Shown piece after piece: positions 1,856-38,540 of a DNA stretch of 64,000 bases. The stretch covers positions 2,806,001-2,870,000 of the forward strand of contig NZ_CP015207.1 in the NCBI RefSeq assembly GCF_002101375.1, written 5' to 3'. Under the pieces are notes generated by a model. That model saw only the letters and a list, made by a program, of their open reading frames with translations. It was not told the DNA's origin and searched no databases. A program made the position numbers and the translations under genes. The stretch is from Sporosarcina ureae (GTDB lineage Bacteria; Bacillota; Bacilli; Bacillales_A; Planococcaceae). Every line of letters begins with the position of its first letter. The stretch's first letter is position 1.

Positions 1856-1934
1856 ACAGAGTAGCTCATTTGCGTATGTAGTGAAGGATAAACTATATAA
1901 GTCGAACAAATGATTTGTTACTTAATAGTACTAA

Positions 1935-2107
1935 GTTGCTTGGAGTGCAAGGCGGCGACTCCTGGGGGATTAGCGTGCGCCTTGAGACCCCGGCCAGATG
2001 CCTTAATTTCTGCAAAGTACACAGAAATACGGCAAAGCGAACCCTTCGCTGTTCGCTTGGCTCAAGCCACGCCCCCCGGAAAGCGTCCGCCTGGAACGGA
2101 AAGCAAC
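1935..2107. repeat. Dispersed palindromic repeat, copy A
   Basis: Long imperfect inverted repeat. The outer arms are GTTGCTT (1935-1941) and AAGCAAC (2101-2107). The conserved inner blocks GGCGGCGACTCC and GGAAAGCGTCCGCC face each other, and the centre carries CTTGAGACC and GGCTCAAG. Same family as copies at 12338, 27490, 27761 and 33534. The short open frames across it are a by-product of the GC-rich palindrome. Confidence 0.85.
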
Positions 2108-2500
2108 GGTTGGTACCGTCCATTTCTTTAATTCATCTTATATAGTAGCTTTGTGATCATATGTGAACTTTTGTCACATTTGTCGTTTGAATATTACAAA
2201 GACGTTACAATATTACAGACTGTAACAAAGAGTGATTTCTTTTCATGCCAAATCACGTGGAAGACGGTAAATTTCCTCGCTATTTTCATCATGTGACCAA
2301 ATGTAATGTTTACTTACCGGATATTTGGTCAATACTATATATGTACTTCCTACCAAAGCGTCTTTTTATGGGATGAAATAGACAAAATACACGATTATCC
2401 TGGATAATTTGTAACTTTATGATCTCTATTCACCATAAATCGATTAATATTTGGTATACTACTATATGTTAGAAAAAATTAAGTAAAAGGAGGGTATTAC
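2108..2500. promoter_or_regulatory. cccB upstream region with four stacked dyads
   Basis: No gene is seen here. Four separate inverted repeats follow each other: TGTGA/TCACA (2162-2178), GTTACA/TGTAAC (2204-2226), GTGATTT/AAATCAC (2232-2256) and TGACCAAAT/ATTTGGTCA (2294-2331). TATACT at 2455-2460 is a plausible -10 for the cytochrome gene. Whether the dyads are operators or a structured leader cannot be decided from sequence alone. Confidence 0.5.
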
Positions 2501-12337: not shown

Positions 12338-12466
12338 GTTGATCAGCGTTCCAGGCGGACGCTTTCCTGCGGGCATGGCTTGAGCCTCCTCGTCCGCTTC
12401 GCTCCCTGCGGGGTCTCAAGGCTCATGCTATTCCCGCGGGAGTCGCCGCCTTCCACGCTGATCAAC
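12338..12466. repeat. Dispersed palindromic repeat, copy B
   Basis: Outer arms GTTGATCAGCG (12338-12348) and CGCTGATCAAC (12456-12466), a perfect 11-bp inverted pair. Inside are GGCGGACGCTTTCC and GGAGTCGCCGCC, the reverse orientation of copy A. The central GGCTTGAG and GTCTCAAG also pair. Confidence 0.88.
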
Positions 12467-27454: not shown

Positions 27455-27489
27455 ATGGAATGGAATGGCTGACGGGGTGTTAGGCTAGG

Positions 27490-27618
27490 GGATTGGCGCT
27501 TCGGAGGGGGACTTTCCGAAGGGGCCGCGGTGAGCCAACTAGGTCGCTGCGCTCCCTTTAGTTGTCTCACCTGTCGACCTGATCCTCCCGGAGTCGCCCC
27601 CTCCTACGCGCCAATCCC
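27490..27618. repeat. Dispersed palindromic repeat, copy C (variant)
   Basis: Outer arms GGGATTGGCGC (27490-27500) and GCGCCAATCCC (27608-27618), a perfect 11-bp pair. The inner blocks are altered to GGGGGACTTTCC and GGAGTCGCCCCC, so the variant has diverged from copies A, B, D and E but the arms still match. Confidence 0.82.
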
Positions 27619-27760
27619 TACAAAGTAAGGTTAGTTACCTATTATTGTGCATTGAAGTTAGTCATGTAATTGATTTAAAATTGAACTTAATAAAGTTCAA
27701 AGACAACAAAAGTTTACAATATATACAGTGATTAACCTACGTTCCTCCACTATAAACGTA

Positions 27761-27890
27761 GGATTGAAGCGGAAGCTGGCGGCGACTCCCGATGGATCAG
27801 CGAGAGCTTGAGACCCTGGACTGAACGAAGTGAGGGAAGCGGCTCAAGCCGAGCCCATGGGAAAGCGTCCGCCAGCTGGAGCTTCAATCC
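27761..27890. repeat. Dispersed palindromic repeat, copy D
   Basis: Outer arms GGATTGAAGC (27761-27770) and GCTTCAATCC (27881-27890); inside are AGCTGGCGGCGACTCCC and GGGAAAGCGTCCGCCAGCT, then GCTTGAGACC and GGCTCAAGC. Same orientation as copy A. Only about 140 bases from copy C. Confidence 0.88.
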
Positions 27891-28028
27891 CATGACGAAC
27901 ACTAAGTAACTCACTCTGGCAAACCCTTTTAAGTTAGATAACAATATTCATAATTAAAAAGGAAATGCAAGATTTTGTCGAATAGGAATAGGGTAGCGTC
28001 AAACAGAATGTACTAGGGGGAATGGGAA

Positions 28029-33446: not shown

Positions 33447-33485
33447 GGGAAGGGTCTTTTTGACTCCTTTCCGTTTTTATTATTG
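33447..33485 (+). terminator. Terminator of fabH-fabF
   Basis: ACGGGAAGG / CCTTTCCGT stem with T tract. Confidence 0.8.
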
Positions 33486-33533
33486 GAGAAGTTGAAGTTG
33501 AAGTTCAAGTTCAAGAGTAAGTGGGAGGGCACC

Positions 33534-33662
33534 GTTGACCGACGTTCCAGGCGGACGCTTTCCGGAGGGCGTGGCCCGAGCCGCTTCCCTCACTTCGTTC
33601 AGTCCAGGGTCTCGAACTCACGCTGATCCTCCCGGAGTCGCCGCCTTCCACTTACGGTCAAC
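33534..33662. repeat. Dispersed palindromic repeat, copy E
   Basis: Outer arms GTTGACCG (33534-33541) and CGGTCAAC (33655-33662); inner GGCGGACGCTTTCC and GGAGTCGCCGCC. Same orientation as copy B. The central CACTTCGTTCAGTCCAGGG is also found, inverted, in copy D. Confidence 0.88.
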
Positions 33663-33699
33663 TAGTGTATTGTTCTATCAATAGAATAATGATGCATTA

Positions 33700-33765
33700 A
33701 AACCCAAACCCAAACCCAAACCCAAACCCAAACCCAAACCCAAACCCAAACCCAAACCCAAACCC
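33700..33765. repeat. Perfect (AAACCC)11 tandem repeat
   Basis: Eleven uninterrupted hexamers. The complementary strand reads GGGTTT repeated and could fold as a G-quadruplex. Non-coding, between repeat copy E and the hairpin at 33766. Confidence 0.95.
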
Positions 33766-37101: not shown

Positions 37102-37134
37102 AAAGGCTACCAGTAAGTTGGTAGCCTTTTTCTT
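37102..37134 (+). terminator. Terminator of mecA
   Basis: AAAGGCTACCA / TGGTAGCCTTT stem, T5. Confidence 0.93.
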
Positions 37135-37479
37135 TATGTCAACCACTGGCAGCGTCTTTGTTAAATGGTGTGTAGGACTAGTTCAAGTACTTGTTTAATC
37201 TGAAATAAGGATTGGGGATAGGGTTGTAGTTCTATCATGAGTGCGTAATAAGCAGTACTGAGTTGTAGTTCTTTCACATGCTTTTTTCTGCTCGTGTTTG
37301 AGCATGGGACTATGGTCTTGCTGAAAATGTAAGTGGAATGCTCATTGTCCCCACTACGGCGCTGGTGGATGGCTTTCGCAAGGAGCCGCAGTCAGGAAGT
37401 GCGCCTGTCTCTGTCTCCTTACTTCGCCTACCACAGCAGGCGCCTTCGTTTGATTGTGTGTGGGGCAGTTCATACACTT
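37135..37479. other. Intergenic lead-in to the repeat array
   Basis: No gene is supported. An imperfect hairpin, GGCGCTGGTGG (37358-37368) with CCACAGCAGGCGCC (37431-37444), is compositionally like the palindromes elsewhere in the window. Confidence 0.4.
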
Positions 37480-37566
37480 CACTCGCAAGAAACAAGTGAT
37501 AGCTATCACAATGTCACTGTTTTTCTTTTTGCTAGAACCACAAACTAATTCATTACCCCAAAGTAG

Positions 37567-37663
37567 CACAGGCACAACTGCGGGGTAGGCCGTGGCCATG
37601 AGCCAACTGGCAGCCCCATCGCCAGCTGGCTCATGGCTGGAGGCAATCCCCCACGTGCCTGCG
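37567..37663. repeat. Array hairpin, copy 1
   Basis: CACAGGCAC / GTGCCTGCG base, then GCCATGAGCCAACTGGC / GCCAGCTGGCTCATGGC around a 9-base loop. Confidence 0.9.
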
Positions 37664-37819
37664 CGGGTCGAGAAAGTGAACACTTGCTAACTTCAGAACC
37701 CAAAAATAAGTCGAGCGACGTCCCCAACAAAAAGTGAGCAAGAAATACATGATAGCTATCACCATGTCACTGTTTTTCTTTTTGCTAGAAACACAAACTA
37801 ATTCATTTCCCCACAGTAG

Positions 37820-37916
37820 CACAGGCACAACTGCGGGGTAGGCCGTGGCCATGAGACAACTGGCAGCCCCATCGCCAGCTGGCTCATGGCTGTAGGCAAT
37901 CCCCCACGTGCCTGTG
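37820..37916. repeat. Array hairpin, copy 2
   Basis: CACAGGCAC / GTGCCTGTG base, upper stem GCCATGAGACAACTGGC / GCCAGCTGGCTCATGGC with two mismatches. Confidence 0.9.
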
Positions 37917-38170
37917 CGGGTTCAGAAAGTGAACACTCGCTAACTTCAGAATCCAAAAATAAGTCGAGCGACGTCCCCAACAAAAGTGAGCAAGATGGGC
38001 AGTTGGGTAGTGGTTCTGCCAAAAGCGTTTCAAGGTTGCGTAATAGATGATGTCCCTTGTTTTGCTAGCATCTTCGGGGCCCTTCATTCGCAAGAAACAC
38101 TTGATCAGTATCACCATGTTGCTAGTTTTTCTTTGTTAGAAACACAAACTAATTCATTACCCCACAGTAG

Positions 38171-38267
38171 CACAGGCACAACTGCGGGGTAGGCCGTGGC
38201 CATGAGACAACTGGCAGCCCCATCGCCAGCTGGCTCATGGCTGGAGGCAATCCCCCACGTGCCTGTG
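38171..38267. repeat. Array hairpin, copy 3
   Basis: Same as copy 2 in the upper stem; base stem perfect. Confidence 0.9.
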
Positions 38268-38423
38268 CGGGTCGAGAAAGCATACACTCGCTAATTTTAG
38301 TATCCAACAACCAGTCGAGCGACGCCCCAAACAAAAAGTGAGCAAGAAATACATGATAGCTATCACCATGCCGCTGGTTTTCCTTTTGTTAGAAACACAA
38401 ACTAATTCATTTCCCCACAGTAG

Positions 38424-38460
38424 CACAAGCACAACTGCAGGGTAGGCCGTAGTCATGCAC
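38424..38460. repeat. Array hairpin, copy 4, truncated
   Basis: Only the 5' arm survives (CACAAGCACAACTGCAGGG); the matching arm is deleted after GTCATG. Confidence 0.8.
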
Positions 38461-38540
38461 CTGCAAGTTTGAATCATGAAACTTTCTCTTGCCAACTAAT
38501 CAGAAAATTCGTAGTATAGAGAAGAAGGAGTGTGAAGGCC

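What the first reader, a model, noticed from the sequence alone, without database searches (positions are those of the whole stretch)
27490..27890. Dispersed palindrome family whose outer arms differ between copies but always match within a copy
Five copies (1935-2107, 12338-12466, 27490-27618, 27761-27890, 33534-33662) share inner blocks GGCGGCGACTCC and GGAAAGCGTCCGCC (altered in copy C). The outermost 7-11 bases are GTTGCTT, GTTGATCAGCG, GGGATTGGCGC, GGATTGAAGC and GTTGACCG, each with its exact reverse complement at the other end. Varied but self-complementary arms look like compensatory change or repair-templated arms, so the fold itself is either selected or a product of the way the element spreads. 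Two copies sit side by side here.
Basis: partly seen in the sequence, partly recalled or inferred. Interest (0 to 1): 0.7.

Follow-up and report, generated by a model that had tools for sequence, protein, structure and literature searches.

The report
Covarying hairpin repeat of IS1182-type elements
A 130-base folding DNA repeat, scattered about 80 times through this Sporosarcina genome and found across Bacillus relatives, keeps the same hairpin shape while its sequence changes, and in related genomes it travels inside small transposons that share their ends with IS1182-family insertion sequences.

Summary
All five window copies and their self-complementary outer arms are real. They belong to a family of about 80 copies in this genome, present in 34 of 36 congeneric genomes and 57 of 250 genomes sampled across the class. 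Helix covariation is far above shuffled and slid controls (43 of 47 pairs change on both sides in 128 copies). Specific internal loops are conserved too, so the fold looks selected and is not just palindrome repair. At orthologous sites two routes of change appear: paired substitutions, and swaps of the whole inner hairpin.

The spreading unit lies outside the window. In a related genus, sharp-ended 257-328 bp miniature elements (ends GAGGCTGGGACA...TGTCCCAGCCTC, no target duplication) carry the hairpin and share ends with an IS1182-family IS. Four such elements and one such IS exist in the window's own genome. Other IS1182-family IS carry the hairpin beside the transposase gene, always pointing outward.

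The window copies lack these ends; reading them as old, vertically inherited remnants is inference. Best guess for function: a folded single DNA strand near transposon ends; an RNA role is not excluded. No published name was found; Rfam tsr24 (S. aureus) is a sub-threshold relative.

The parts
1932..2110 (+). copy A, single; apex replaced by a nested hairpin module
   Evidence: R1 match 87.9 bits; sequence
1994..2062 (+). nested apical module (ends approximate), also in at least three other copies of the genome
12335..12469 (-). copy B, single; inner hairpin differs at the same site in G018 and G024
   Evidence: R1 match 133.9 bits
24259..24285 (-). remnant of a deleted copy (full element in G019, internally deleted in G018)
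   Evidence: alignment
27485..27622 (-). copy C, left member of an outward pair; GGAAAGCG altered
   Evidence: R1 match 110.8 bits
27623..27755 (.). AT-rich centre of the outward pair; similar centres in other pairs of the genome
   Evidence: alignment
27756..27895 (+). copy D, right member of the outward pair
   Evidence: R1 match 118.9 bits
33531..33665 (-). copy E, single; same outer arms but another inner hairpin in G018 and G019
   Evidence: R1 match 125.3 bits

Best explanation
The repeat is a structural module: a hairpin of about 130 nt with fixed internal loops (CGACTCC/GGAAAGCG, GGA/GGA, an A.G mismatch) and freely changing but complementary stems. SHOWN: it is carried by IS1182-family insertion sequences and by miniature elements with IS1182-type ends (GAGGCTGGGACA...TGTCCCAGCCTC); copies linked to IS1182 genes always have the same strand running outward. 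INFERRED: such units dispersed it, mostly behind genes because IS1182-family transposases favour terminator hairpins; most copies then lost their ends and persist as vertically inherited remnants that change by paired substitutions, by swaps of inner hairpins between copies, by tandem duplication and by deletion. The five window copies are taken to be such remnants. INFERRED, less certain: the selected form is a folded single DNA strand, the one running 5' to 3' out of the unit, which acts in recognition or processing of the transposon ends.
For: Fold: covariation in 20 own and 128 other copies, at orthologous sites too. Vehicle: 34 units with sharp ends and no target duplication, carrying the hairpin wherever read in full; an IS1182-family IS with the same ends; four such units and one such IS in the own genome; hairpins inside IS1182-family IS of Lysinibacillus and Sporosarcina and beside IS1182 genes of G226. 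Orientation: adjacent copies -+ 15, +- 0; all 19 gene-linked copies counted point outward. Placement: 32 of 35 clusters lie 3' of a gene; IS1272 of this family targets hairpins and terminators without duplication (PMC4923244). Strand: G.T 71 against A.C 23 on the outward strand. Loops: cGNAg, cGNNAg and gCNNGc classes, of which d(GNA) closed by C-G is a known stable DNA loop (PMC5815330).
Against: The single copies and pairs of this genome, the window's included, show no IS1182-type ends above control. The hairpin is not needed for IS1182 transposition: the multicopy IS of G275 lacks it, as does one IS with ends CAGACTGTAGACAAA. G001, G005, G012, G013, G016 and G019 have copies but no IS1182-family match. 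No protein or transcript was tested; the loop evidence leans to DNA but does not decide.
Confidence: 0.5

Rival explanations
1. The fold acts as RNA: a UTR structure, small RNA or transcription barrier. Mobile units keep it because it shields the transposase gene from outside transcription or makes insertion into terminators harmless; the stand-alone copies act as 3' UTR structures.
For: In several IS the 5' copy lies between a promoter-like stretch and the start codon (by eye). 32 of 35 clusters lie 3' of genes. G.T exceeds A.C as in RNA. S. aureus tsr24, a weak relative, is filed as a small RNA.
Against: Only 1.6% of cells are wobble pairs. GNNA loops show no purine preference at position 3 (10 purine, 14 pyrimidine, my count). 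Orientation to the neighbouring genes is unbiased, and the folded strand is not the strand transcribed from an upstream host gene into an outward-pointing copy.
Confidence: 0.27
2. No selection on the fold: long palindromes are kept self-complementary by template switching during replication, and copies are homogenised by recombination between repeats.
For: Rewritten perfect arms in some copies (693753, 1108338) and whole-module swaps with break points in conserved blocks.
Against: The internal loops and bulges stay unpaired across genera and are among the most conserved bases; templated repair would erase them. G.T/A.C asymmetry and strict outward orientation are not explained.
Confidence: 0.12
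3. A REP-like element mobilised by a Y1/RAYT tyrosine transposase.
For: A subset of copies has GTAG just 5' of the arm; one RAYT-like Y1_Tnp gene exists in the genome.
Against: No hairpin near any of 30 Y1_Tnp loci. G007, G010 and G020 have 43-50 copies and no Y1_Tnp; G006 and G021 have Y1_Tnp and no copies. The RAYT locus carries a different repeat.
Confidence: 0.05

Closest known systems
IS1182-family insertion sequences (IS1272 and relatives) and their miniature derivatives
   Same: Units carrying the hairpin have the same ends as IS1182-family IS, no target duplication and terminator-like flanks (PMC4923244).
   Different: The hairpin module itself is not known to me as part of the family and is absent from some active members; most copies of the window's genome lack the ends.
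REP/BIME elements and RAYT (PMC3733652)
   Same: Short intergenic palindromes, 3' of genes, in singles, inverted pairs and arrays, with compensating stem changes.
   Different: Larger and more complex fold; no Y1 transposase link.
Rfam RF02577 tsr24 (S. aureus)
   Same: Shares GACTCC...AGACC...GGCT...GGAAAGCG in the same register.
   Different: 25-28 bits against a gathering score of 50; shorter apex; filed as a small RNA.
bcr1-bcr18 repeats of the Bacillus cereus group (PMC6542083)
   Same: Dispersed 100-400 bp repeats with mobile features; about 39 bcr1 per strain.
   Different: Described as restricted to the B. cereus group and tied to TTTAT motifs, which were not seen here; sequences were not compared.
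integron attC sites
   Same: Imperfect palindromes conserved by shape more than sequence and recognised as folded DNA (own knowledge).
   Different: No cassette arrays seen; an integron integrase was not looked for.

Membership tests
IS1182-type miniature element (the unit that carries the hairpin) | terminal inverted repeats shared with an IS1182-family IS of the same genome | tested here: met
   g27 units and the G275 IS; four own-genome units and the L266 IS
IS1182-type miniature element (the unit that carries the hairpin) | multiple near-identical dispersed copies with sharp ends and no transposase gene | tested here: met
IS1182-type miniature element (applied to the five window copies) | IS1182-type ends around the copy | tested here: not met
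   52 non-unit copies show no excess of end-like sequence over reversed or shuffled controls; the window copies are therefore not filed as members, only as probable remnants
REP/RAYT | linked or co-occurring Y1 (RAYT) transposase | tested here: not met
REP/RAYT | GTAG tetranucleotide at one end | tested here: inconclusive
   present in one arm class only, CTAG/CCAG or others elsewhere
Rfam tsr24 (RF02577) | score at or above the gathering cut-off | tested here: not met
   20.2-27.9 bits against 50
bcr1 | TTTAT motifs at the element borders | not tested
   sequence of bcr1 not available in the papers read; feature from PMC6542083
integron attC | linked integron integrase and cassette array | not tested
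   no search for an integrase was made; the dispersed intergenic layout speaks against it

The most novel reading that the evidence does not exclude
IS1182-family transposons and their miniature derivatives use a large folded single strand of DNA near their ends, read by shape (fixed loops, freely exchangeable stems) and passed between elements as a module.
Probability: 0.25. Interest if true: 0.75.

Novelty: new variant of a known kind. Interest (0 to 1): 0.5.

Why it matters
It gives a Bacillales-wide repeat, unnamed in the literature searched, a measured structure, a conserved core and a vehicle, so that its function can be tested. If the fold is read as DNA, shape-based recognition would extend from Y1 transposases and attC sites to an IS family already known to aim at hairpins. 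It is also a clear natural case in which covariation arises both from paired substitutions and from swapping whole hairpin modules, a caution against reading covariation as proof of point-by-point selection.

Tried and rejected
Rfam at the gathering cut-off: no hit on the repeat. RAYT/Y1 partner: rejected by co-occurrence and by scanning 30 loci. Recurrent neighbour genes in 120 loci of other genera: most groups were ordinary conserved genes; an IS1182-family group was followed up. Literature by sequence words: nothing relevant. STAR elements (PMC3532100): consensus and layout differ. Clean empty sites: none found. In the 64-kb comparison all four window sites hold a family member in G018; apparent absences elsewhere were deletions or gene gains. 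The other G018 stretches were chosen around known hits, so they say nothing on absence. IS1182-type ends around the single copies: none above control. Phages: no match; plasmids: 17 records. IS110 genes near two plasmid copies: taken as chance, not tested.

Full report
CHECK OF THE OBSERVATION. The two inner blocks occur 5 times each against 0.16 and 0.23 expected; one hit of the second block (8716) is not in a copy. Copy C lacks the CG of GGAAAGCG. Copy A is longer because a second hairpin module replaces its apex. The window is G000:C1:2806001-2870000 of a single-contig 3.35-Mb genome. A congener, G023, has the contig length of Sporosarcina thermotolerans CP125968, so the genus is taken to be Sporosarcina.

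THE FAMILY. A covariance model (R1, 136 positions, 47 pairs) built from 20 own copies finds 83 matches in the genome at E <= 0.01; the best 81 form 56 clusters. 34 of 36 other genomes of the genus have it, as do 57 of 250 genomes and 22 of 103 genera sampled across the class. By exact pattern it occurs in Psychrobacillus, Planococcus, Lysinibacillus, Virgibacillus, Evansella, Lederbergia, Jeotgalibacillus, Salipaludibacillus and others. Seventeen plasmid records and no phage record match. Rfam tsr24 of S. aureus is a sub-threshold relative over the same core motifs.

THE FOLD. In 20 own copies 91.1% of cells pair (75.8% shuffled), 30 of 47 pairs change on both sides, and the covariation score is 0.394 against 0.147 shuffled and at most 0.097 slid. 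In 128 distinct copies from other species 43 of 47 pairs change on both sides, with 841 two-sided cells against 243 shuffled; the score is 0.368 against 0.116 and at most 0.071 slid. The second alignment was fitted to the structure and relatedness is not modelled, so the exact numbers are soft; the size of the effect is not. Specific unpaired bases (the CGACTCC/GGAAAGCG loop, the GGA/GGA loop, an A.G mismatch) are well kept.

DNA OR RNA. On the strand used here G.T cells outnumber A.C cells 71 to 23 (21 to 9 in a second set). A double-stranded cruciform would give equal numbers, so one strand appears to fold. Wobble pairs are rare (1.6%). Apical loops are mostly cGNAg (107 of 211), then gCNNGc (34) and cGNNAg (31) (classified by pattern, so some may be chance). 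Position 3 of the GNNA loops is purine 10 times and pyrimidine 14 times (my count). d(GNA) loops closed by C-G are known stable DNA loops (PMC5815330); that d(cGNNAg) and d(gCNNGc) are too is from my own knowledge. This leans to DNA and does not decide.

HOW IT CHANGES. At orthologous sites (neighbourhoods about 87-91% identical) some copies differ by clean paired changes (103061: C-G to T-A; 436253: T-A to C-G; 1108338: TTCC/GGAA to TTTT/AAAA). Others keep the outer arms but hold a different inner hairpin (12335, 33531), with break points in the conserved blocks. Arrays grow and shrink as tandem repeats, and hairpins are deleted (site 24264). In the 64-kb comparison with G018 all four window sites are occupied in both species and none is unique to one; at site A the two species hold different members. 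Most of these copies are therefore old and vertically inherited.

LAYOUT. 32 of 35 analysed clusters lie 3' of at least one flanking gene (17 ++, 11 convergent, 4 --; 3 divergent), with no clear orientation bias to genes (gene calls are simple open reading frames). Neighbouring copies within 400 bp are -+ 15, +- 0, -- 8, ++ 2: inverted pairs always point outward.

THE VEHICLE. In G062 and G275 (another genus of the same family) the hairpin lies in units of 257-328 bp that begin GAGGCTGGGACATA and end TTGTCCCAGCCTC, without target duplication and with mostly A-run|T-run flanks (34 units by their ends; hairpin present in all units read in full). A 562-aa IS1182-family IS of G275 has the same ends. 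The window's own genome has four such units, GAGGTTGGGACAGAAC...GTTATGTCTCAGTCTC, each with the hairpin, and one IS1182-family IS with matching ends. Other IS1182-family IS, with ends CAGACTGTAGACAAA, carry the hairpin between end and gene, sometimes on both sides. In G226 many of the hairpins lie beside IS1182 genes or deleted remnants. All 19 gene-linked copies I counted point outward. IS1272, of the same family, is reported to insert in hairpins and terminators with blunt ends and no duplication (PMC4923244), which fits the placement behind genes.

WHAT IS NOT SHOWN. The single copies and pairs of this genome, the window's included, have no such ends. Their origin from IS1182-type units rests on the shared hairpin, the outward layout and the placement. 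The hairpin is not needed for IS1182 transposition: the multicopy G275 IS lacks it, and so does one IS of the CAGACTGTAGACAAA type. Several genomes rich in copies have no IS1182-family match. No protein or transcript was tested.

VERDICT. A real and strongly covarying structured repeat family, a module of IS1182-type mobile units; the window copies are most likely old remnants. Function as a folded DNA strand is the leading guess and unproven.

Noticed in passing
L031:2030-2640 and L031:1149 (G000:C1 about 2.577 Mb): The only RAYT-like Y1_Tnp gene of the genome sits beside an array of a different repeat (about 49 nt, GAGGACCTGGTACTGTGTCG...), with a lone related copy (GGTACCAGGTCC) on its other side.
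   Followed up: partly
window 1994-2062; L026, L030, L002, L027, L004: Two further hairpin modules (GGTGCCTTAATTTCTGCAAAGTACACAGAAATACGGC... and GAGTGCAAAGATGTGCTCC...) are nested inside copies at several positions and in both orientations; the g27 miniature elements carry a similar nested module at CGA|CTCC.
   Followed up: partly
window about 33665-33760 and 33480-33520; L002, L003: Simple repeats flank several copies: (CCCAAA)n and (TTGAAC)n tracts of differing length next to the hairpins.
   Followed up: no
window 37131-38486: An internally repeated stretch that matches G018 and G019 in several registers; nature unknown.
   Followed up: no
L110:2366-3150 against G018 and G024: An enoyl-CoA hydratase-like gene next to a three-copy hairpin cluster in G019 is missing, together with the cluster, from G018 and G024.
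   Followed up: no
L262, L279, L284, L126: IS1182-family IS with ends CAGACTGTAGACAAA duplicate the whole terminator palindrome (26-32 bp) at insertion, unlike the duplication-free units with GAGGCTGGGACA ends.
   Followed up: partly
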